Assembly: GCA_022360105.1 (NCBI GenBank)
Contig: JAKSDL010000384.1
Span: forward strand, 1-26,868
Direction of reading: 5' to 3'
From: Pseudomonadota bacterium
GTDB taxonomy: Bacteria; SAR324; XYD2-FULL-50-16; JAHJRI01
DNA length: 26,868 nucleotides
Shown here: piece by piece, positions 7,755 through 25,945 of the stretch
Layout of the letters: every line of letters begins with the position of its first letter
How positions within the stretch are numbered: position 1 is the first letter of the stretch
Notes under the pieces: generated by a model
What the model was told of the DNA's origin: nothing
Seen by the model: only the letters and a program-made list of their open reading frames with translations
Database searches by the model: none
Made by a program: the position numbers and the translations under genes

Positions 7755-8081
7755 ATGAAAATCAATCCGGATATGTCGTTATACCACCTCAATCAGGCTA
7801 AAGCGAAAGCCAAGATGGGAAGTACATCCAAGGTCAATGAAGAGGAAATTACAGCCTATAATAAACGATTGAAGAGCGCTTGTGACGGGTTTGAAGAGAT
7901 ATTTGTCCATAAAATGATTCAGGTAATGCGAAGCACAACCGATAAAGATACATTGCTTTATGGTGGCAGAGGTGAAGAGATTTTCCAGGATATGCTGGAT
8001 GAGAACTATGCCAAGTTAATTACGCAAAGCAAGGCTCTGGGCTTAAGCGACTTGATTTATGAGCAGACTAAAAAAAGTTAA
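7755..8081 (+). CDS. flgJ: Rod-binding/capping protein FlgJ (short form)
   Basis: A 108-residue protein matching only the N-terminal rod-binding domain of FlgJ: CDGFEEIFVHKMIQVMRST and the GGRGEEIFQDMLDENYAKLIT segment. The C-terminal muramidase domain of enterobacterial FlgJ is absent, as in many non-gamma proteobacteria, so peptidoglycan cutting must come from another enzyme. It begins 13 bases after flgI with a GGA ribosome site. Its stop codon overlaps the -35 element of a sigma-28 promoter. Confidence 0.92.
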   Translation: MKINPDMSLYHLNQAKAKAKMGSTSKVNEEEITAYNKRLKSACDGFEEIFVHKMIQVMRSTTDKDTLLYGGRGEEIFQDMLDENYAKLITQSKALGLSDLIYEQTKKS

Positions 8082-8105
8082 AGTTGCGGAATCAAATGCC
8101 GATAA
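8079..8105 (+). promoter_or_regulatory. Consensus sigma-28 (FliA) promoter overlapping the flgJ stop
   Basis: TAAA at 8079-8082, exactly 15 bases of spacer, then GCCGATAA at 8098-8105. This is an exact match to the enterobacterial sigma-28 consensus. The TAA of the -35 is also the flgJ stop codon. It lies about 235 bases upstream of flgM, the anti-sigma-28 gene, as expected for class 3 control. Confidence 0.88.
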
Positions 8106-8284: not shown

Positions 8285-8338
8285 GAAATAAGAAAATATT
8301 TCCCTTTGGTGTCCGGAGGTTTAATCTTGGAGGTTGAT

Positions 8339-8638
8339 ATGAAAATTAAAGGTCAGGTGCCTAAGGTTCCAACCCAGGACCAGGGCATTCAGAAGGGCAA
8401 AGAGAAGGAGATTGCTCGGACGGAAGACCAAAAAACAGCTTCGACGGAAAAAACATCGGTCGAACAGTTTGCGGTCAAAAAGCTTCGAGGCAAGATCGAA
8501 TCTGAGCCGGATGTAAACCTGCAAAAAGTAAAAGAACTAAAAGAGAAACTTAAAAAAGGCGAATATAAGGTCGAAACGGAAAAATTGGCTGACAATCTTC
8601 TTAAAGACTCATTGCTGGAAGATATTTCTGATTCTTAA
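8339..8638 (+). CDS. flgM: Anti-sigma-28 factor FlgM
   Basis: A 99-residue, highly charged protein with the FlgM C-terminal signature: a helical KVKELKEKLKKGEYKVETEKLADNLL stretch at about residues 63-88, split here only by description. FlgM holds sigma-28 inactive until the hook is complete and is then exported. I chose the ATG at 8339 because TTGGAGG sits 5 bases upstream; an upstream TTG at 8306 would add 11 residues without support. No fliA gene is in the window. At least one strong sigma-28 promoter lies ahead, giving the expected feedback loop. Confidence 0.9.
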   Translation: MKIKGQVPKVPTQDQGIQKGKEKEIARTEDQKTASTEKTSVEQFAVKKLRGKIESEPDVNLQKVKELKEKLKKGEYKVETEKLADNLLKDSLLEDISDS

Positions 8639-14032: not shown

Positions 14033-14064
14033 AAGTAAGCGGTCTGCAAATATCCGCTTATTCA
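14033..14064 (-). terminator. Hairpin at the end of the minus-strand M15 peptidase gene
   Basis: On the minus strand GTGAA-T-AAGCGG pairs with CCGCTT-AC-TTCAC, about 11 bp with a small internal loop; the 5' arm includes the peptidase stop codon. No strong T run follows, so termination activity is uncertain. Together with the fliW terminator it fills the gap between two converging operons. Confidence 0.5.
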
Positions 14065-14729
14065 CAGACATTTATAACAAATCTTCTGTACAACTCCGGC
14101 AGCCTCTCCAACACGGCATTTTTTCCCAGCATTTCGCTTTCCGAAATAGCGTCCCTGATGATTTCGGTGGTATGTTCCTGAAGCAGCAATTTGGACTGCG
14201 GGGCATAACTCAAATGCCAAGGTTCTTCGCACACTCCTCCCTTGTATTCCCGGTAAGGTTTAAAAAAGCCAAATGACTCGGCATGTGTTTCCAGCCATCT
14301 GTCTAGTTTTTCGAACACACCTCCCTGCCTGTATTCTTCGGGTAAGAGCTTGACTTCATAGTTTTCCGGAATTGAGGCTGAATCGATGATGTCCATATCC
14401 GTGCCCCAGTGATGCCGGCTACCTCCAGGCAAAGCTGACCAGGACAAAATAACATCGATCAGCTGTTCTTCGGATAAACTGAGACATTCTAACAATTTAC
14501 CTTCAGGACTGTATAAAGGTCTTTTGCCTGAGAATTTGTCATTCCAGATTTTCAATTGCTGATCAAAACTACGATAGGAGCTATAAGCTCTCAGTTGTAT
14601 ACCATCCTGAGCAGCCTGGTGTTTCATTTCCAGAAAAGCGGCTGCAGTGTTGCGCTCTGCCGACAGGGCACCGGAGTCTGTTTGGATAATGTGGGAATTA
14701 GCTCGGCCTGTTAGCTCTAAGGGTGTCAT
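14058..14729 (-). CDS. M15 (VanY/LdcB-like) D-Ala-D-Ala or L,D-carboxypeptidase
   Basis: A 223-residue peptidase of the LAS/M15 superfamily. The zinc signature is intact: SRHHWGTDMD at 104-113 supplies H106 and D113, and EEPWH at 168-172 supplies the catalytic E169 and zinc ligand H172. The AYSSYRSFDQQ segment (48-58) is the family's conserved N-terminal motif. These enzymes trim peptidoglycan stem peptides. No signal peptide is visible, so either it acts in the cytoplasm on recycled muropeptides or it is exported another way. It is the last gene of the unit with the hydrogenase-like genes, 72 bases after the cytochrome b gene. Whether it works with that complex or with flagellar passage through the wall is unknown. 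Confidence 0.86.
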   Translation of the reverse strand: MTPLELTGRANSHIIQTDSGALSAERNTAAAFLEMKHQAAQDGIQLRAYSSYRSFDQQLKIWNDKFSGKRPLYSPEGKLLECLSLSEEQLIDVILSWSALPGGSRHHWGTDMDIIDSASIPENYEVKLLPEEYRQGGVFEKLDRWLETHAESFGFFKPYREYKGGVCEEPWHLSYAPQSKLLLQEHTTEIIRDAISESEMLGKNAVLERLPELYRRFVINVCE

Positions 14730-14801
14730 GTCATTGAGGATTTTGCGGATGGGATGAAGTTTTGGCTAACTCTTGACCGAAAAAAACCAGTAGCCTAGCC
14801 G

Positions 14802-15368
14802 TTAAAATCCCCTCAGGTAATTGTAAAGTGCACGGAACCATTGCTTCAAAGTCAGATAGTATTTTATGAAGACCATGGAAAGGAAAAACCAGCCTGCAAT
14901 GGAGTGAAGTAGGGATGCGGTTGATTGGTAAATTAATGAATCGTAAATGGAGAATTCTTTTAAGAAATAATAAAGAAAGCCCAGGCAGCAAACAATCATC
15001 AGCATGATATAGAAAATAATATCAACAATGCGTCGTGTGCTGGATTGATCAGGGAAAACATCTGCAATTGCTTGAATATTCATCCTGTTGGACGACTTTC
15101 TTTTCTTAAATATCGATTGCTGTAAATAGTTATAAGCAAGAATTATAAACACCAGAATCAGACCAAAACCGCTGAATACGTGTATGGTCATCAATCCCAG
15201 TCGGCCAAAAAGCATTAGAACAACAGGATATTGAATTCCAAGAGAAGAAGCATAAAGCAACAAGAGCAAAATTATTAGTCCCCAGCTGTGAATGCGTTTA
15301 TAGAAACTGGAGTAGAGCTTTAACACAACTTGCTGAAACTTCATCGTTCTGATTTTATTGAGTTCCAT
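14802..15368 (-). CDS. Hydrogenase-type cytochrome b subunit (HyaC/HupC-like)
   Basis: A 188-residue integral membrane protein with four predicted helices at about residues 29-47, 58-80, 115-137 and 150-172. Histidines in the membrane-facing segments (H27 in RIHSW, H63 in TIHVFSG, H155 in LLHSIAGW) fit the b-type haem ligands of the Ni/Fe-hydrogenase cytochrome b family. In working hydrogenases this subunit passes electrons to quinone. The family match is from topology and histidine pattern, since overall similarity is low. The first ATG (15368) overlaps the end of the large-subunit gene by 14 bases; a second in-frame ATG is at 15344. The overlap indicates translational coupling and a shared complex. 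Confidence 0.78.
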   Translation of the reverse strand: MELNKIRTMKFQQVVLKLYSSFYKRIHSWGLIILLLLLYASSLGIQYPVVLMLFGRLGLMTIHVFSGFGLILVFIILAYNYLQQSIFKKRKSSNRMNIQAIADVFPDQSSTRRIVDIIFYIMLMIVCCLGFLYYFLKEFSIYDSLIYQSTASLLHSIAGWFFLSMVFIKYYLTLKQWFRALYNYLRGF

Positions 15369-16818
15369 CGAGGGTAAGCGGGTAATAGGAATGGAGAATT
15401 CTGCTGGCTGTAAGTGGCTTTAGTCCTTTTGCTTTTAGCTGCGCATTAAGGACATGTTCTACTTCTCCGGAATCTCCGTTTTTGTCTGCTGGAGCAAAAT
15501 TCCAGTTCATTGAAGAAACAATGCGGTAATGCTCAATTCTCCCGTTTTTTATGAAGATCTGATGCATCAATGAACCACCCGGTGATTCAATTTTACCAAC
15601 CCCGACTCCTTTTGCTGAAAAAGAAAAACTTGTTTTTTGGTTGGTACCGATAGTGTCGTCAAAGTCTAACAGATTGATCAAAGTATTCTTTAAAAAGATT
15701 CGACTTTCCATGACTTCAGCCAACAGCCGGCTGGCAATGCAATTCGGTCTATCAAAAGTTAGTTCCAGATCATCAATTATCTGACCGACCATGTCGCTGA
15801 TTTCCAGGTTTCCTCCTGCCAAATGGGTTACCATCATCCTGGAAAGAGGACCTGTCAGCATGGTCTCCCCTTGATATCTGGCGCCTTTAACCCAGGTTTT
15901 TGCATCGGGCTTGTTGAAATCATAGGTTGATTTTTTGATTTGTCCTATTTTATCGACTGGCAGGTAAAAGGTATTATCGACAGTTTCGGTTATTTTTAGC
16001 TCATTAACCGGTTCAAGTTTTCCATGAAGAAGCGCGCCTTCCGAATAATTGGAGGTTTTTCCCTTGTTTTTATCAATAGCCAGTGAACCAAAACTTAAAA
16101 GATTTAACTGTTTACCTAAAACAGTCACAGAACCAGGAGTATGTCCAATTAAATCTTTGACATCCTGGGGCCAGATAACTTCAATGAACTCTTTACATTG
16201 CTCCAAATTCCTTATGGCAGCCATTTTCAAACTGCGACCGATTGCGAAATTGGAAACCCCACCCGGGATTTGATTCATGATGACCGGGTATTTACCTCCG
16301 AACATGGTAAGGTTTTTCTGGAGTAAATCGATAATCCTGGCAGCTTTGATTGCATGCTGCATGATCTGTATACCGATCTCCTTGGGCAGATCTTCCTTGT
16401 CCGATTGCTTTCTGTGAATTCCGGTGTAAAACCACAATTCATTTTCCTTAAACGATTCAAAATGTTCTTCATTCAGGTAGTTTGGCAATACCTGCCAGTA
16501 AAAATGGTAAATGTGAGATCGAATGGCAGCCATATCCAGCATAACCTGACGAACTCTCAATCCCGTTTCGGTTGGAAATATATGCAGATAATCCTCAAGA
16601 GCTGACACAGCGGCAACCGCATGGGCAACGCATGAGTTTGACGACAGTGTCTGTGTGAGTTGGGGAGCTTCCAACGGAAATCTTCCCCTGAGCCTTTTGT
16701 CCAAATGAGTTGAACGCCCGCTTTGTAGAAATGCCCTACTGCCTGCATCGGTCTGAGAAAGCAATACCCTGAGATCACCCTCAATTCTTGGCAATCTTTC
16801 TACAATTACACTATTCAT
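15355..16818 (-). CDS. [NiFe]-hydrogenase large-subunit homologue lacking the Ni-Fe ligands
   Basis: A 487-residue homologue of group 1 hydrogenase large subunits. Recognisable landmarks are RIEG at 11-14 (followed by D, not the usual H), the AHAVAAVSALE helix, the PGGVSN motif, ARYQG...TGPLSRM, and a C-terminal block like the family's YxxV..xxWN.aP. The active site is gone. The N-terminal RxCGxC site reads TLSSNSC, so both Ni-Fe cysteines are Ser (S59, S62). The C-terminal DPCxxC site reads YPLTLD, giving Leu481 and Asp484. The active-site APRG arginine motif reads SPGG. No cleavable C-terminal extension follows, consistent with no Ni insertion and no maturation protease. The ATG at 16818 is preceded by AGGAGG; the gene overlaps the small-subunit stop by 8 bases. 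The frame is uninterrupted, arguing against a decaying pseudogene. Confidence 0.9.
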   Translation of the reverse strand: MNSVIVERLPRIEGDLRVLLSQTDAGSRAFLQSGRSTHLDKRLRGRFPLEAPQLTQTLSSNSCVAHAVAAVSALEDYLHIFPTETGLRVRQVMLDMAAIRSHIYHFYWQVLPNYLNEEHFESFKENELWFYTGIHRKQSDKEDLPKEIGIQIMQHAIKAARIIDLLQKNLTMFGGKYPVIMNQIPGGVSNFAIGRSLKMAAIRNLEQCKEFIEVIWPQDVKDLIGHTPGSVTVLGKQLNLLSFGSLAIDKNKGKTSNYSEGALLHGKLEPVNELKITETVDNTFYLPVDKIGQIKKSTYDFNKPDAKTWVKGARYQGETMLTGPLSRMMVTHLAGGNLEISDMVGQIIDDLELTFDRPNCIASRLLAEVMESRIFLKNTLINLLDFDDTIGTNQKTSFSFSAKGVGVGKIESPGGSLMHQIFIKNGRIEHYRIVSSMNWNFAPADKNGDSGEVEHVLNAQLKAKGLKPLTASRILHSYYPLTLDGTQ

Positions 16819-17821
16819 CGGTGTCCTCCTCAAAACCAAAAACTGAATCTTCGCCCATAGATCGTGACTTTCGACCGGAAAAAGCGTGAATGGCGACACC
16901 TGCGAGAGTTACACCGAATGCACCCTGGGCTATCGTCGAAGCATTTCGGACGAAAAAGGAATTGATAGGAGCATTGTCGGCGTTAAGCTGCCCGAAGAGT
17001 CCTAACCCACTATTGTTGGGGTAGTCAGGTTCAGAACAACCTGTGCAGGGACTTCCGGCACTGACGCACCAGGATGCCGTGCCGTTCCATTTTTCAACAG
17101 CGCATGAATTTCTGGTTACCGGCCCCTTACAGCCAAGCAAATACAGGCAACCCTCTTTTTGTCCGTATCTCCGAACAAAATTTCCCTGTTCAAAGTCTCC
17201 ACGATATTGGCAACGTTCACAGATAACCTGAGAATAAAACATGTTGGGGCGGCGATATTCGTCCAACTCAGGTGGGCCATATAATTTCAGGTGGTTGAGT
17301 GCTCCAACCAGATGACGGATAGGAACCGGATTGCCGGGTAGTTTAAAATAAGGAGTTTCAACCAGGTAGAGCAATTCTTTTTCCAGGTCTAAAAAACCAT
17401 CCGGAGCCGATTGACTGTAGGAAGCTTCATTTCCCATCAGAATGGCAGCACGTGAAACGACTATTAAATCCTTAAGTAGTATATTAATTGGATCGTCCAA
17501 GTCTTGGGAGAAGTATCCATCAAGAATCAAAATGTGACCGCCCCCGTTTTCGCTACTTTCAATAGTAATTTCCTGAATATCCGGTGAATCAGATTCTATC
17601 AAAGTAAAATGCTTTTCCATAAATGTATGAAATCCCGGATAGCTCCAAACACCGGAACGATGAATGCCACTGCTTTGACCAAGCACCCAAATAATGGATT
17701 GCTTCGATTTCTCTGTTTCAGCCAGGAGATTGGATGAAAGCATATTTAGAAGCACAGGGGTTGTTAAACCGCCAATCATCATCTGCTGGATGAATTTTCT
17801 TCTGCTTAGATTAGTCGTCAT
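16811..17821 (-). CDS. [NiFe]-hydrogenase small-subunit homologue without the proximal cluster
   Basis: A 336-residue protein with an N-terminal Tat signal (SRRKFIQ at 6-12, hydrophobic segment to about 33) and a C-terminal membrane anchor (about 296-314). In the family, the proximal cluster cysteines lie in CxxC, GTCAS and PGCPP motifs; here they read SGIH (S51, H54), GNEAS (E132) and PGNPV (N164), so all four are lost. The distal site keeps C204, C225, C231, and its usual histidine is replaced by C201. The medial site keeps C240, C259, C262 and has C252 where the family has a proline. Both remaining sites are thus four-cysteine. Tat export would carry the folded large subunit with it. It is the first gene of the minus-strand unit. 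Confidence 0.9.
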   Translation of the reverse strand: MTTNLSRRKFIQQMMIGGLTTPVLLNMLSSNLLAETEKSKQSIIWVLGQSSGIHRSGVWSYPGFHTFMEKHFTLIESDSPDIQEITIESSENGGGHILILDGYFSQDLDDPINILLKDLIVVSRAAILMGNEASYSQSAPDGFLDLEKELLYLVETPYFKLPGNPVPIRHLVGALNHLKLYGPPELDEYRRPNMFYSQVICERCQYRGDFEQGNFVRRYGQKEGCLYLLGCKGPVTRNSCAVEKWNGTASWCVSAGSPCTGCSEPDYPNNSGLGLFGQLNADNAPINSFFVRNASTIAQGAFGVTLAGVAIHAFSGRKSRSMGEDSVFGFEEDTDE

Positions 17822-18333
17822 ACGGCTTAGGATAAAAATTTTCTTTTTTGTGTCATAAACATAAGATGCATCTTGACTACTTGAGCTTCAAGCCAGGATA
17901 CACTGATTAAATTGTCTTGACTACTCAGAGTCGATTTTTATGCATTTACGGACAATTCATAGTACATTGTCAATGCTGCCGATAAAAATCAATCCTCTCC
18001 TGGAGGATTCAAAGCGGAAGCCATAGGTAAAAGAACAGTCAATGGAATTATGAATGCCTCCGGAAAAGTCGGTTTATACATTTAAACAGGTGATAAATGT
18101 ACATGATCGGAGTGGTCAATAGTCAAGTGATGTGCTTAAAAAGCTGATCGATCTCATGGTTTTTAATTTCATGTGAAATGGTGACTAACGATTGATCACT
18201 GACATGCAAGAATGGAGAACAAAGACTTCCGACATTCAGGCCTCAAAATAAAAAGCGTTGCAATTTCCTACCAACTGGAAAACAATACTCAAAACCAATC
18301 TCATTTTTTAAAAACACTAGCTCACTGGTTATA
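17822..18333. other. Divergent intergenic region upstream of the hydrogenase-like unit
   Basis: 512 bases with no credible gene. It holds the promoter(s) for the minus-strand hydrogenase-like unit and the plus-strand gene at 18334, neither matching a standard consensus clearly. Visible structure includes a direct repeat TCTTGACTACT at 17871 and 17915, an inverted copy of its core (TAGTCAAG) at 18119-18126, and a short palindrome CATTG-T-CAATG just before a GCCGATAA string at 17978-17985. Confidence 0.55.
17871..17925. repeat. Direct repeat TCTTGACTACT upstream of the hydrogenase-like operon
   Basis: Two exact 11-base copies at 17871-17881 and 17915-17925, 44 bases apart, about four helical turns. 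They lie 50-105 bases upstream of the small-subunit start. This layout suits a pair of regulator binding sites on one face of the DNA. No known regulator is assigned. Confidence 0.5.
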
Positions 18334-18918
18334 ATGGCTTTATTCAATTTATTCGGGAAAAAACTCAAGGGAGAAAACAAGTACTTTAAATCCAGAGTAG
18401 CCGATGCTCGTCAGGAAGGTGACTCAGATGAACCCAAGGCTGATTCGAAACCAAAACCAGTTTCCCGGTCTGAATCCCGGGAACAATTCCCGCTGATCAG
18501 TGAACGAATTATTAACAAAACCTTGCTGACAGAATTGTTAAAGCTGATGCGAAATTATGACGTGCAGTCGACTGTGACAGTGTTAGCGAACACCCTGGAT
18601 ACCAATGCGCGTAAAGCAGCCATTATGATCAATAAGGGATACATTCCAAAAAGAATCGTCGCTTATCTGCAAAATATCAACATGCGAAACATAGAAGATT
18701 CCATCAAGCTGGCACGCAATGCAAGCGCCGAAGAAAATGGATTTGTTTCCGTTGATGAAAGGACTGCAGCAAATCTAAACCTTCCGCTAGGTTGCATGTT
18801 ATTGGGGATATATCATCATCTAAAGGATGAATTTGCGGTGGTTCTGGTCGCTAAGACCAGTCTGAAGGACAAGGAAAAATTTGTTGAAAAAGTCAGGGAA
18901 ACAATCAGACGATCTTAA
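18334..18918 (+). CDS. Unrecognised 194-residue protein next to fliI
   Basis: A cytoplasmic protein with no signal or membrane segment. Residues 1-50 are basic and low-complexity (FGKKLKGENKYFKSR, then a Glu/Lys/Pro/Ser region), residues about 55-125 look helical (LLTELLKLMRNYDVQS and onward), and about 130-194 look alpha/beta (FVSVDERTAANLNLPLG, FAVVLVAKTS). I do not recognise the family. It has no clear ribosome site. It is convergent with fliI, with 33 bases between the two stops, and divergent from the hydrogenase-like unit. The frame and base use look like a real gene, but its function is unknown. Confidence 0.7.
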   Translation: MALFNLFGKKLKGENKYFKSRVADARQEGDSDEPKADSKPKPVSRSESREQFPLISERIINKTLLTELLKLMRNYDVQSTVTVLANTLDTNARKAAIMINKGYIPKRIVAYLQNINMRNIEDSIKLARNASAEENGFVSVDERTAANLNLPLGCMLLGIYHHLKDEFAVVLVAKTSLKDKEKFVEKVRETIRRS

Positions 18919-18951: not shown

Positions 18952-20313
18952 CTATGCAGCGGGTTGTTCAAATTGATTTTGATTGGAATTGCCTTGAGGG
19001 TGATCTTGAAACATCTGTTCCAGCATGGCCTCACATTCCAGCAACAAGGCACTATCTAGAATACCCTGCCTCAAAAAACTATTTATTTCATCTATCTTTT
19101 TAATTGCGTAATCAATATTTGGATTCGAACCCTTTACATAGGCTCCAATATTGATTAAGTCCTCGGCTTCCTTGTACGTGGACAGGGTCTGAATTAGTCT
19201 CCTGGAATTCTCCTGATGGGTCGGAGAGGTTACATCGACCATTACCCTACTTTTTGAACGCAGTACATCGATGGCAGGATAATGCCCACGGGCTGCAATT
19301 TCCCGGTCCAAAAGGATATGACCATCCACAATAGAACGCACAGCATCCCCAATTGGATCCAGCGGATCATCTGCTTCCACTAACACCGTATAAAATCCTG
19401 TCAATGACCCTTTTGCAGCGGAATTTCCTGCTCTTTCCAATAATTTGGGGAGATAGGCAAAAACAGAGGGTGGGTAACCTTTGGTGGTTGGAGGTTCGCC
19501 GACAGCAAGCCCTATTTCCCTTTGTGCCATGGCGAAACGGGTTACACTGTCCATCATCAGCAACACATCTTTGCCTTGCTCCCGGAAATACTCAGCAATA
19601 GCTGTCGCAAGGAAGGCTCCTCGAATACGAACCAAAGGAGATTGATCAGAAGTTGCCGCTATTACAATGGAACGCTTTCGACCTTCCTCTCCAAGATCGC
19701 GCTCGATGAATTCTTTTACCTCACGCCCACGTTCACCAATCAATCCGATGATGTTTACATCCGCTGTAGTATTTCTGGCCATCATACCTAAAAGGACTGA
19801 TTTACCGACTCCTGAACCGGATAGAATAGCCAGGCGCTGTCCTTTTCCTGCCGTGAGAACCCCATTGATTGCTTTGATTCCAACATCAAGCGGACTATCG
19901 ATGCGTCGGCGTTGAAGCGGATTGATAGGCTCTTTGTACAGCGGAACTTTTGTGATTGCATCTATCGAACCCAATCCATCGATCGGATTTCCCATGCCGT
20001 CAATTGTTCTGCCTAACAAAGCATCACCGACAGTCACGGTCGGCTGGTCCGTGGTGGGAACAATTCTGCTTTGTGGTCCGATTCCCCTGATTTCGCCTAA
20101 TGGCATCACCAGTATCTTGTCATCCTTAAAGCCCACGGCTTCCCCAGGTACGATCTCGTTTGTAGAGGGATTGACAATGGAACAACTGCTGCCGATACGC
20201 AGGCCGGGATTGTGAGCTTTAATTAAAAAGCCGACAACTTCATCCACTTTGCCCTCAACTTTTTCCGGTTGAGTTTGTTCCATCAATTCTATGTAAGGCT
20301 TTATATCAAACAA
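18952..20313 (-). CDS. fliI: Flagellar export ATPase FliI
   Basis: A 453-residue F1-beta-like ATPase, close to the usual FliI length. The Walker A motif is SGSGVGKS at 165-172, the conserved GERGREV at 193-199, and Walker B LLMMD at 251-255, with QREIGLAVGEPPTTKGYPPSVF typical of FliI rather than F1. It energises unfolding and loading of export substrates at the flagellar gate together with FliH. The TTG at 20313 has an AGGT ribosome-like site 8 bases upstream; an ATG at 20283 would remove 10 residues. The C terminus has a Gln/Asn-rich tail. It is the last gene of the flgB operon as seen here; no fliJ follows in the window. Confidence 0.96.
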   Translation of the reverse strand: MFDIKPYIELMEQTQPEKVEGKVDEVVGFLIKAHNPGLRIGSSCSIVNPSTNEIVPGEAVGFKDDKILVMPLGEIRGIGPQSRIVPTTDQPTVTVGDALLGRTIDGMGNPIDGLGSIDAITKVPLYKEPINPLQRRRIDSPLDVGIKAINGVLTAGKGQRLAILSGSGVGKSVLLGMMARNTTADVNIIGLIGERGREVKEFIERDLGEEGRKRSIVIAATSDQSPLVRIRGAFLATAIAEYFREQGKDVLLMMDSVTRFAMAQREIGLAVGEPPTTKGYPPSVFAYLPKLLERAGNSAAKGSLTGFYTVLVEADDPLDPIGDAVRSIVDGHILLDREIAARGHYPAIDVLRSKSRVMVDVTSPTHQENSRRLIQTLSTYKEAEDLINIGAYVKGSNPNIDYAIKKIDEINSFLRQGILDSALLLECEAMLEQMFQDHPQGNSNQNQFEQPAA

Positions 20314-24694: not shown

Positions 24695-25894
24695 TTATTT
24701 TTGATCAGCTAACCAGCGTTCAGCATCGATTGCTGCCATGCAGCCTGTGCCTGCTGCGGTTACAGCTTGGCGGTATTCGCTGTCCATTACGTCTCCACAG
24801 GCAAAAACGCCTTCAACGTTCAATGCCGTGCTTCCTGATTTTGGTAGCAGGTAGCCGTTTTTATCCATATCCAGTGATCCCTTAAACAATTTGGTATTGG
24901 GTGTGTGTCCGATCGCCACAAACAAACCTGTTACACCAAGCTCCGATATCTCTCCGCTTTTGACATTCTTTATGCGCAAATCGGTCATACTATTTCCATC
25001 CCCAACGACTTCTTCGACAACGGAATCCCATTTTACCGTGACTTTTTCGTTGTTTAACACCCGGTCTTGCATTGTTTTGCTTCCTCTAAATTCATTCCTG
25101 CGGTGTATAAGATAAACATGCTCGCAAAAATTCGTTAAGTAGGACGCTTCTTCCAGTGCCGTGTCTCCTCCCCCGACAACGGCTACCTTCTGACCTTTGA
25201 AAAAGAATCCGTCGCAGGTTGCACAGGCTGAAACCCCTTTGTTTTTATATTTGATTTCACTGTCTAAACCCAGGTATCTGGCGGATGCCCCGGTGGCAAT
25301 TATCAGGGCATCACAAGTGTATGTCTTGCCACTTTCCTTTAATTCAAATGGTCGTTTGGAAATATCAACATCGGCTATTTCACCAAACACAACTTCCGTA
25401 TCGAACCGAGTCGCCTGTTTTTCCATTTGCACCATTAACTCATTGCCATCCACACCTTCAGGGAAACCAGGGAAGTTTTCCACATCTGTCGTAGTTGTCA
25501 ACTGCCCACCTTTTTGCGGACCGGTGATAATCAACGGAGAAAGATTGGCCCTGGCAGCGTATATTGCTGCGGTGTAACCGGCAGGACCCGATCCCAAAAT
25601 GATGATTTTTCTATGAATCGAGTCTTCGGCAGCAGAATCGATCTGCAACAGTTCATCCAATTTTCCTGCCCTTTCCAGATCATATAGATCGTCACATCCT
25701 CCAACGTGATGATCATTTATAAAAACCTGGGGAACCGTTCGTCGACCATTGGCTTTTTCTATCATTTCCGTCAAACGTTCGGGATAAACATCCACTTCAA
25801 TTTCTTCATAGCTGACACCCTTGGAAGCGAGTAGCTCTTTAGCTCTGACACAAAATGGGCAATAGTCTTTTGAATAGACAACAACGTTTTTCAT
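24695..25894 (-). CDS. Glutaredoxin-thioredoxin reductase fusion
   Basis: A 399-residue fusion. Residues 1-85 are a complete glutaredoxin: CPFC at 12-15, TVPQVFI at 53-59 and GGCDDL at 65-70. Residues 95-399 are a full low-molecular-weight thioredoxin reductase: FAD motif GSGPAG at 101-106, redox pair CATC at 224-227, NADPH motif GGGDTA at 241-246, the HRRNEFR patch at 264-270, and the C-terminal ACGD FAD motif. Electrons would run NADPH to FAD to CATC to the attached CPFC, making a self-contained reductase. I chose the ATG at 25894 (MKNVVVYSKDYC); the TTG at 25906 adds 4 residues. No ribosome site is obvious. It lies between the receiver-only protein and the flgB operon, all minus strand. 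Confidence 0.94.
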   Translation of the reverse strand: MKNVVVYSKDYCPFCVRAKELLASKGVSYEEIEVDVYPERLTEMIEKANGRRTVPQVFINDHHVGGCDDLYDLERAGKLDELLQIDSAAEDSIHRKIIILGSGPAGYTAAIYAARANLSPLIITGPQKGGQLTTTTDVENFPGFPEGVDGNELMVQMEKQATRFDTEVVFGEIADVDISKRPFELKESGKTYTCDALIIATGASARYLGLDSEIKYKNKGVSACATCDGFFFKGQKVAVVGGGDTALEEASYLTNFCEHVYLIHRRNEFRGSKTMQDRVLNNEKVTVKWDSVVEEVVGDGNSMTDLRIKNVKSGEISELGVTGLFVAIGHTPNTKLFKGSLDMDKNGYLLPKSGSTALNVEGVFACGDVMDSEYRQAVTAAGTGCMAAIDAERWLADQK

Positions 25895-25945
25895 TTCTAA
25901 TACCAATACAGAATTATTTTTTTGGGATTTGTCGCGGAATGTGAT

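What the first reader, a model, noticed from the sequence alone, without database searches (positions are those of the whole stretch)
14802..17821. Hydrogenase-like complex that has lost its Ni-Fe site but stays intact and organised
The unit has the exact order of a group 1 membrane hydrogenase (small, large, cytochrome b) with overlapping genes, a Tat signal and a membrane anchor, yet all four Ni-Fe cysteines of the large subunit are replaced (S59, S62, L481, D484) and the APRG arginine motif is SPGG. Open frames, good ribosome sites and coupled overlaps argue for selection. NuoD of complex I shows that a large-subunit fold can lose Ni-Fe and keep another role, but I know of no described Tat-exported, cytochrome-b-linked version. 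A periplasmic redox sensor, quinone-linked electron carrier or new active site are all possible. No hyp or protease genes are present in the window.
Basis: partly seen in the sequence, partly recalled or inferred. Interest (0 to 1): 0.95.

Follow-up and report, generated by a model that had tools for sequence, protein, structure and literature searches.

The report
Nickel-free hydrogenase relative in SAR324
About a third of the SAR324 bacterial genomes examined carry a conserved relative of the hydrogen-using enzyme hydrogenase that lacks the residues needed to hold its nickel-iron centre but keeps its middle iron-sulphur and heme ligands in every copy checked, so it is predicted not to use hydrogen and likely senses or relays electrons at the membrane.

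Summary
The small-large-cytochrome b operon (17821-14802, minus strand) is intact, under purifying selection (dN/dS 0.035-0.068), and belongs to a family whose named members are nearly all SAR324-type bacteria. Two clades form one branch apart from other hydrogenases. Among 128 large subunits none has more than one of the four Ni-Fe cysteines (121 have none); the last became Asp/Glu in 126 of 127. The small subunit has also lost the proximal-cluster cysteines (none left in 65 of 66, one left in 1) yet keeps eight medial and distal cysteines in 66 of 66, two of them rare or absent in other hydrogenases. Cytochrome b keeps one pair of heme histidines and lost the other in 17 of 17. So the electron chain is cut at both ends and its middle is fixed. 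Nine of 17 genomes with the complex show no HypD. In both clades it often lies beside flagellar genes. Best reading: a repurposed, nickel-free redox module, most likely a quinone-pool sensor; the sensor role is inference. My ten paper searches turned up no description of it.

The parts
16811..17821 (-). small-subunit gene, 336 aa, hydrogenase small-subunit relative
   Evidence: PF14720 hit 9e-26, no PF01058 hit at E <= 0.1; fold hits are group 1 small subunits, best 5mdj_S E 2.2e-14; model poor after residue 246
17789..17806 (-). twin-arginine motif SRRKFI (residues 6-11)
   Evidence: sequence, consensus recalled; RR within the first 40 residues in 50 of 66 relatives, the other 16 begin past the motif or elsewhere as predicted in the database; TatC found in 15 of 17 genomes with the complex, not in G002 and G006
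17330..17671 (-). stretch holding the four emptied proximal-cluster positions: S51, H54, E132, N164
   Evidence: Cys in 49, 46, 50 and 49 of 50 other small subunits; Cys in 1, 0, 0 and 0 of 66 family members; E/D at 132 in 62 of 66
17036..17221 (-). eight invariant cysteines: distal C201, C204, C225, C231; medial C240, C252, C259, C262
   Evidence: 66 of 66, and in 7 of 7 clade B small subunits read from loci plus P0115. C201 is His in 49 of 50 others; C252 is Pro in 41, Cys in 7, Lys in 2 of 50 others. C252 aligns with the Cys of MBH-P242C, 7odg/7odh
16877..16942 (-). C-terminal helix 294-315, likely membrane anchor
   Evidence: helix in the model at low confidence
15355..16818 (-). large-subunit gene, 487 aa, Ni-free hydrogenase large-subunit relative; overlaps the small subunit by 8 bases
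16633..16644 (-). S59 and S62 in place of the N-terminal CxxC
15577..15579 (-). G414 in place of the Arg of APRG
   Evidence: Arg in 8 of 8 true SAR324 enzymes, in 0 of 127 family rows with the column filled
15358..15378 (-). L481, D484 and terminal Q487 in place of C-terminal CxxCxxH; the protein ends at the place where true enzymes are cut (cut site recalled)
   Evidence: D or E at 484 in 126 of 127; no residues beyond 487 in 128 rows, 15-16 beyond it in 6 of 8 true enzymes, 0 in the other two
14802..15368 (-). cytochrome b gene, PF01292; likely start 15344
14904..15182 (-). retained heme ligand pair H63 (15180-15182) and H155 (14904-14906), 188 aa numbering
   Evidence: equivalents of HyaC H63 and H184 kept in 17 of 17 aligned cytochromes of both clades; ligand role recalled
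14862..14864 (-). K169 in place of the second helix-4 heme histidine
   Evidence: HyaC H198 position: K or R in 8 of 8 clade A, no His in 9 of 9 clade B; HyaC H22 position also without His in 17 of 17
14058..14729 (-). VanY-type D-Ala-D-Ala carboxypeptidase relative, 72 bases downstream, possibly same operon
   Evidence: PF02557 1.7e-31; its cluster lies near the complex in 7 of 9 clade A loci
18952..20313 (-). fliI, flagellar export ATPase, upstream on the same strand (then fliH, fliF, fliE and two rod genes)
   Evidence: fliI at most two genes from the small subunit in 8 of 9 clade A loci
17871..17925 (-). two copies of AGTAGTCAAGA, 44 bases apart, upstream of the small subunit
   Evidence: kept with one change in L001, in a well conserved block; function unknown

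Best explanation
This is a hydrogenase-derived complex that lacks the ligands for the Ni-Fe site, for the proximal iron-sulphur cluster and for one of the two hemes, and it likely works as a membrane-bound quinone-pool redox sensor in which electrons would pass from quinol through one b heme into two four-cysteine iron-sulphur clusters that form a dead end. Shown by sequence: the losses, the invariance of the eight cluster cysteines and two heme histidines in the copies examined, one such gene set per genome, low dN/dS in the pair tested. Predicted: the full-length hydrogenase fold of the large subunit. Inferred: Tat export of the small subunit with the large one carried along; two [4Fe-4S] clusters; the heme lies on the periplasmic side (pairing recalled from FdnI/HyaC); the medial cluster, having no partner beyond it, stores an electron instead of passing it on; its redox state is read out through the large subunit, which serves as a non-catalytic lid or docking domain. 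Its neighbours (flagellar genes in both clades, a wall carboxypeptidase in clade A) suggest, without proof, that the output concerns motility or the cell envelope.
For: Ni-Fe ligands: at most 1 of 4 in any of 128 large subunits, 122 of which fill all four columns. Proximal ligands: 0 of 4 in 65 of 66, 1 of 4 in one; medial and distal cysteines 8 of 8 in 66 of 66, one absent from and one rare in the 50 others. One heme pair kept, the other lost, 17 of 17 against 5 of 5 controls with all four. One side of a branch against 13 other large and 40 other small subunits, 100/99 and 100/100. dN/dS 0.035-0.068. Fold kept in the model. Seven clade B genomes have this as the only match at E <= 1e-3 to either large-subunit profile and no HypD. 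fliI near it in 8 of 9 clade A loci, flhB and flhA in 5 of 9 clade B loci.
Against: No direct evidence for sensing: no signalling domain among the window's operon genes, no partner shown. A dead-end chain is inferred, not measured; a new cofactor in the emptied proximal or Ni-Fe space would undo it. Flagellar linkage is not universal (absent in 1 of 9 clade A and 4 of 9 clade B loci, two of the latter on contigs under 10 kb); 51 of 52 genomes have FlhA while only 17 have the complex; neighbours are inherited together, so the loci are not independent, and I computed no chance expectation. No FliA or sigma-54 type site was found upstream of the operon. The small-subunit model is weak where the clusters sit. 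Eight of the 17 genomes do have HypD (one as a fragment), so Hyp-independence is shown by absence in drafts only.
Confidence: 0.42

Rival explanations
1. An enzyme with a new active site: the emptied cavity between large and small subunit binds another metal or cofactor, held by conserved acids and histidine (E13, H66, D484 of the large, E132 of the small subunit), and feeds electrons to the medial cluster.
For: D/E at 484 in 126 of 127, E13 in 122 of 123, H66 in 116 of 123 and E/D at 132 in 62 of 66; the large-subunit fold is kept in the model.
Against: No new Cys ligand shared by both clades: only one column per clade holds Cys in more than half of the rows, and the two columns differ. E13 and H66 are simply inherited from hydrogenases. 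Without the proximal cluster the old Ni-Fe site would lie about two hops from the medial cluster (distance recalled). I saw no cofactor gene recurring among the neighbours that I annotated; not all were annotated.
Confidence: 0.25
2. A plain electron relay: quinol to heme to distal cluster to a periplasmic carrier, with the large subunit only as a cover.
For: The heme pair and the distal cluster cysteines, the usual exit of hydrogenases (recalled), are fully kept.
Against: It does not explain why all four medial cysteines are invariant, nor the kept large subunit. No cytochrome c or oxidase among the neighbours that I annotated (not all neighbours were scanned).
Confidence: 0.2
3. A structural complex of the envelope or flagellum in which redox chemistry no longer matters.
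For: Gene neighbourhood with flagellar and cell-wall genes.
Against: Ten cofactor ligands invariant in the copies examined from two clades argue that the cofactors are used.
Confidence: 0.08
4. A decaying hydrogenase pseudogene, or a true hydrogenase whose ligands are misaligned.
For: Loss of the catalytic ligands.
Against: dN/dS 0.035-0.068; no stop inside the large-subunit match in 17 of 17 genomes; flanking residues of the ligand columns align well with solved and true enzymes; a CxxC occurs in 1 of 128 rows.
Confidence: 0.02

Closest known systems
Group 1 membrane-bound [NiFe]-hydrogenase (E. coli Hyd-1 HyaABC; D. gigas and NiFeSe types)
   Different: no Ni-Fe ligands, no active-site Arg, proximal cluster ligands lost, no C-terminal extension, second heme pair gone, His to Cys at the distal and Pro to Cys at the medial cluster
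NuoD / FpoD of complex I and relatives (L1 and L2 motifs no longer conserved; PMC7886697, passages seen)
   Same: a hydrogenase large-subunit fold without Ni-Fe ligands and in another role
   Different: NuoD belongs to the group 4 line, is cytoplasmic and keeps the cluster next to the old site (recalled); here an exported-type group 1 relative lost exactly that cluster's ligands and keeps the other two
Ehr complexes, listed with Nuo, NARF and HmdII as homologues that do not metabolise H2 in HydDB (PMC5037454, passages seen)
   Same: hydrogenase homologue without H2 role
   Different: Ehr is group 4-like (recalled); none of the four listed is, to my knowledge, a Tat-type group 1 relative
Cupriavidus necator / Ralstonia eutropha MBH variant P242C (7odg, 7odh)
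   Same: a fourth Cys at the medial cluster, at the place of C252 here
   Different: a variant there, natural and invariant here; 7 of 50 other small subunits also have Cys there

Membership tests
Group 1 [NiFe]-hydrogenase | N-terminal CxxC (L1) Ni-Fe ligands | tested here: not met
   position 62 Cys in 0 of 123 and position 59 Cys in 6 of 123 filled rows; 8 of 8 true SAR324 controls have both
Group 1 [NiFe]-hydrogenase | C-terminal CxxC (L2) Ni-Fe ligands | tested here: not met
   position 481 Cys in 1 of 127, position 484 Cys in 0 of 127
Group 1 [NiFe]-hydrogenase | proximal [FeS] cluster ligands in the small subunit | tested here: not met
   65 of 66 keep none of the four Cys, one keeps one
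Group 1 [NiFe]-hydrogenase | medial and distal cluster ligands | tested here: met
   66 of 66, with His to Cys at the distal and Pro to Cys at the medial cluster
Group 1 [NiFe]-hydrogenase | large-subunit fold | tested here: met
Group 1 [NiFe]-hydrogenase | di-heme cytochrome b with four ligand histidines | tested here: not met
   two of four in 17 of 17; a fifth His shared by the controls (HyaC 125) is lost too
Group 1 [NiFe]-hydrogenase | twin-arginine signal on the small subunit | tested here: met
   SRRKFI by eye; export itself not tested
Group 1 [NiFe]-hydrogenase | Hyp maturation genes in the genome | tested here: inconclusive
   HypD not found in 9 of 17 genomes with the complex, found in 8 (one fragment); drafts, and some carry true hydrogenases
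Group 1 [NiFe]-hydrogenase | H2 activity and Ni content | not testable with these tools
   -
Complex I NuoD | sequence match to NuoD family | tested here: not met
   no NuoD model among the 8 NCBIfam hits at E <= 0.01; best hits are NiFe/NiFeSe large subunits, below cut-off
Complex I NuoD | nuo gene neighbourhood | tested here: not met
   window neighbours are flagellar genes
Ehr complex | membership by reference sequences | not tested
   no Ehr reference was fetched

The most novel reading that the evidence does not exclude
A bacterial phylum has turned the exported group 1 hydrogenase into a nickel-free redox switch: both ends of the electron chain were cut off, the middle was locked with two extra cysteines, the vacated cavity was refitted with carboxylates (D484 beside the inherited E13 of the large subunit, E132 of the small), and the state of the quinone pool is reported to the flagellum or cell wall. 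It would be the first respiratory hydrogenase known to have become a signalling device outside the complex I line.
Probability: 0.22. Interest if true: 0.92.

Novelty: new variant of a known kind. Interest (0 to 1): 0.78.

Why it matters
Loss of Ni-Fe from a hydrogenase fold is familiar from complex I but was not known to me, nor found in my ten paper searches, for the exported group 1 line. Here it is shared by two deep clades and shows the opposite pattern to complex I: the cluster next to the old site is the one that was lost. It gives a natural test of what the rest of the hydrogenase machine can do without its catalyst. It also matters for surveys: several public records name these proteins 'nickel-dependent hydrogenase large subunit', PF00374 hits them, and SAR324 has been credited with hydrogenases from annotation (for example HyaAB in PMC8364033, passage seen), so H2 use may be over-counted where the four cysteines are not checked; whether those particular records are this family I did not test.

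Tried and rejected
Pseudogene and misalignment: rejected on dN/dS, open frames and the alignment to true enzymes; the structural match gives ranges only, so it supports the fold, not single ligand columns. Ligands elsewhere: the Cys found in most of clade A (C360) is not the one found in most of clade B, and CxxC occurs in 1 of 128 rows. Oddity of one genome: rejected, 17 of 52 genomes of the phylum carry it, 8 clade A and 9 clade B, never both. Flagellar promoter upstream: sigma-54 type pattern 0 matches in the window at up to 1 mismatch; FliA-type pattern 5 matches at up to 2 mismatches against 2.4 expected, none upstream of the operon, one overlapping its downstream end (14779-14805, plus strand) and one inside the large subunit (15950-15976, minus strand) (consensus recalled). 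No tRNA or Rfam match in the window. In notes I first took the clade A neighbour C22 for MltG; Pfam shows a calcineurin-like phosphoesterase. Paper searches: ten; two found nothing, and no listing that I saw pointed to a Ni-free exported group 1 relative; passages of PMC4744846 and PMC5317091 were also read without result. Mostly open-licence papers are held. The large-subunit protein searches scored a capped set of candidates (7997), so family sizes are lower bounds. A complex model (small + large + cytochrome) was not made, and model coordinates were not in my Python box, so cavity and distance statements are recalled or inferred. VIA-align lists are a second look at Foldseek matches; a family missing there is not excluded.
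Full report
What is there. On the minus strand at 17821-14802 lie three genes in the order small, large, cytochrome b. Pfam finds the C-terminal domain of the hydrogenase small subunit (PF14720) but not the domain that carries the proximal cluster (PF01058; cluster role recalled), the Ni-hydrogenase large subunit (PF00374) and a cytochrome b561 (PF01292). NCBIfam hydrogenase models match only far below their cut-offs, best NF033181 at 189 of 600 bits. Up and downstream the window is a flagellar region: two FlgE/F/G-type rod genes, flgA, flgH, flgI, rod-binding, flgM, flgN, flgK, flgL, csrA, fliW on one side, and fliI, fliH, fliF, fliE and two rod genes on the other.

Relatives. A search of 5.8 billion proteins, with a capped candidate list, gives 49 large-subunit clusters at E <= 1e-5; a second search gives 116 small-subunit clusters, of which P0050-P0115 (66) share the features described here and 50 are other hydrogenase small subunits. 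Most have no name; the family members named in the listings are SAR324, Candidatus Lambdaproteobacteria, Deltaproteobacteria, Proteobacteria or plain 'bacterium', and one clade B record says Gammaproteobacteria. The one genome-contig hit is SAR324 PL25a_bin.53, 88% identical. In 52 genomes of that phylum, 8 carry the window's kind (clade A) and 9 a diverged kind (clade B), none both. A clade B profile gives 86 hits, of which 79 are clade B and 7 are other hydrogenases.

Ligands, large subunit. In an alignment of 49 clade A, 79 clade B and 8 true SAR324 enzymes, the number of the four Ni-Fe cysteines is 0 in 121 family members and 1 in 7 (P0040 and six of clade B), against 4 in 8 of 8 true ones; 122 of the 128 fill all four columns, the rest have gaps at some of them. 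Position 59 is Ser in 46 of 46 filled clade A rows and in 46 of 77 clade B rows (19 Gly, 6 Cys, 5 Thr, 1 Ala); position 484 is Asp in 122, Glu in 4 and Asn in 1 of 127. The Arg of APRG is absent from all 127 filled rows. The Glu of RIEGH (E13; proton gate, recalled) is kept in 122 of 123. No row extends beyond position 487; of the 8 true ones 6 have 15-16 residues more, but two (L019, L028) have none either, so this last trait is not diagnostic.

Ligands, small subunit. The four proximal positions are Cys in 49, 46, 50 and 49 of 50 other small subunits and in 1, 0, 0 and 0 of 66 family members; the third of them is now Glu or Asp in 62 of 66. The eight medial and distal positions are Cys in 66 of 66. 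Two of these are changes: the distal His is Cys (His in 49, Arg in 1 of 50 others) and the medial Pro is Cys (Pro in 41, Cys in 7, Lys in 2 of 50). The latter is the position of the MBH-P242C structures 7odg and 7odh. The same pattern holds in the seven clade B small subunits read from loci and in P0115; two clade B loci (L040, L042) gave no small subunit in my simple gene calling.

Ligands, cytochrome b. HyaC of E. coli and four SAR324 cytochromes beside true hydrogenases share histidines at HyaC 22, 63, 184 and 198 (5 of 5; taken as the heme ligands from recalled structures), and also at 125. In 8 clade A and 9 clade B cytochromes, 63 and 184 are kept in 17 of 17; 22, 125 and 198 are lost in 17 of 17; five of the 8 clade A members have a His one residue before position 22, which could in principle stand in. 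A ninth clade A copy (L035) was read in the same call and shows the same two histidines but was not in the aligned count. Of three clade B membrane proteins scanned two have no Pfam hit and one only a weak hit to DUF4405, so their kinship to PF01292 rests on position (a hydrophobic frame behind the large subunit in 9 of 9) and on the histidine pattern.

Selection and descent. Window against L001: dN/dS 0.035, 0.068 and 0.036 for small, large and cytochrome, beside 0.013-0.035 for four flagellar genes (fliI, fliH, flgK, fliW), 0.071 for the 194 aa gene and 0.134 for vanY; dS is 0.95 to 2.3 for the complex, so ratios are rough. A large-subunit tree puts clades A and B together against 13 others (100/99) and a small-subunit tree against 40 (100/100), each clade being one side of a branch. 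One loss in a common ancestor is the simplest reading; the root is not inferred, and the references do not cover all hydrogenase groups.

Maturation and export. HypD is found above cut-off in 18 of 52 genomes and as a fragment in G001; of the 17 genomes with the complex 9 show none (7 of 9 clade B, 2 of 8 clade A) and 8 show it. In the seven clade B genomes without HypD the complex is the only large-subunit match at E <= 1e-3. No completeness figures were given for these genomes. TatC is found in 15 of 17.

Neighbourhood. Clade A: fliI at most two genes from the small subunit in 8 of 9 loci, a VanY-type carboxypeptidase gene near it in 7 of 9. Clade B: flhB in 5 of 9 (flhA on the same contig in the same five), an S24-type regulator gene in 6 of 9 (divergent from the small subunit in the five where both were called), an acyl-CoA dehydrogenase in 5 of 9 (Pfam was run on one member of each cluster). 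FlhA is in 51 of 52 genomes of the phylum, so flagella do not need the complex.

How it likely works. The ligands of the parts that begin the hydrogenase reaction (Ni-Fe site, proximal cluster) and of the heme that would carry electrons on through the membrane are gone, while those between are fixed. That makes H2 oxidation very unlikely. It leaves a chain of medial cluster, distal cluster and one heme. Because the medial cluster has no known successor, I favour storage and sensing over throughput, and put this at 0.42 with rivals as listed. The link to flagella is a lead.

Novelty. HydDB lists Nuo, Ehr, NARF and HmdII as homologues without H2 metabolism (PMC5037454, passages); [quoted passage not shown] Papers on SAR324 mention group 1d hydrogenases in aquifer genomes (PMC9031357), absence of hydrogenase (PMC4782131), HyaAB (PMC8364033) and group 1l (PMC10305171); I saw passages only, and none of these describes lost ligands.

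Noticed in passing
17871-17881 and 17915-17925: Direct repeat AGTAGTCAAGA (minus strand) 44 bases apart upstream of the small subunit, kept in L001 with one change; possible operator.
   Followed up: partly
L039, L041, L042, L044, L046, L047: A regulator gene with a Peptidase_S24 domain (Pfam run on the L039 copy) next to clade B complexes, divergent from the small subunit in the five loci where both were called; in L039, L044 and L047 it lies between the complex and fliR-flhB-flhA.
   Followed up: partly
14058-14729: VanY-type D-Ala-D-Ala carboxypeptidase behind the complex, its cluster in 7 of 9 clade A loci, with the highest dN/dS (0.134) of the nine genes tested.
   Followed up: partly
8079-8105: Match without mismatch to the recalled FliA-type pattern upstream of flgM (8306-8638).
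   Followed up: no
P0116, P0164: Small subunits with PF01058 whose second proximal Cys position reads Asp or Asn; possibly other hydrogenase lines with a changed proximal cluster.
   Followed up: no
L019, L028: SAR324 large subunits with all four Ni-Fe cysteines but no C-terminal extension.
   Followed up: no
24695-25906: Glutaredoxin fused to a pyridine nucleotide-disulphide oxidoreductase, 403 aa.
   Followed up: no
18334-18918: 194 aa protein without Pfam or NCBIfam hit, opposite strand between fliI and the complex, in 4 of 9 clade A loci.
   Followed up: no
L033, L035, L037, L038: Calcineurin-like phosphoesterase cluster (Pfam run on the L033 copy) between fliI and the small subunit.
   Followed up: no
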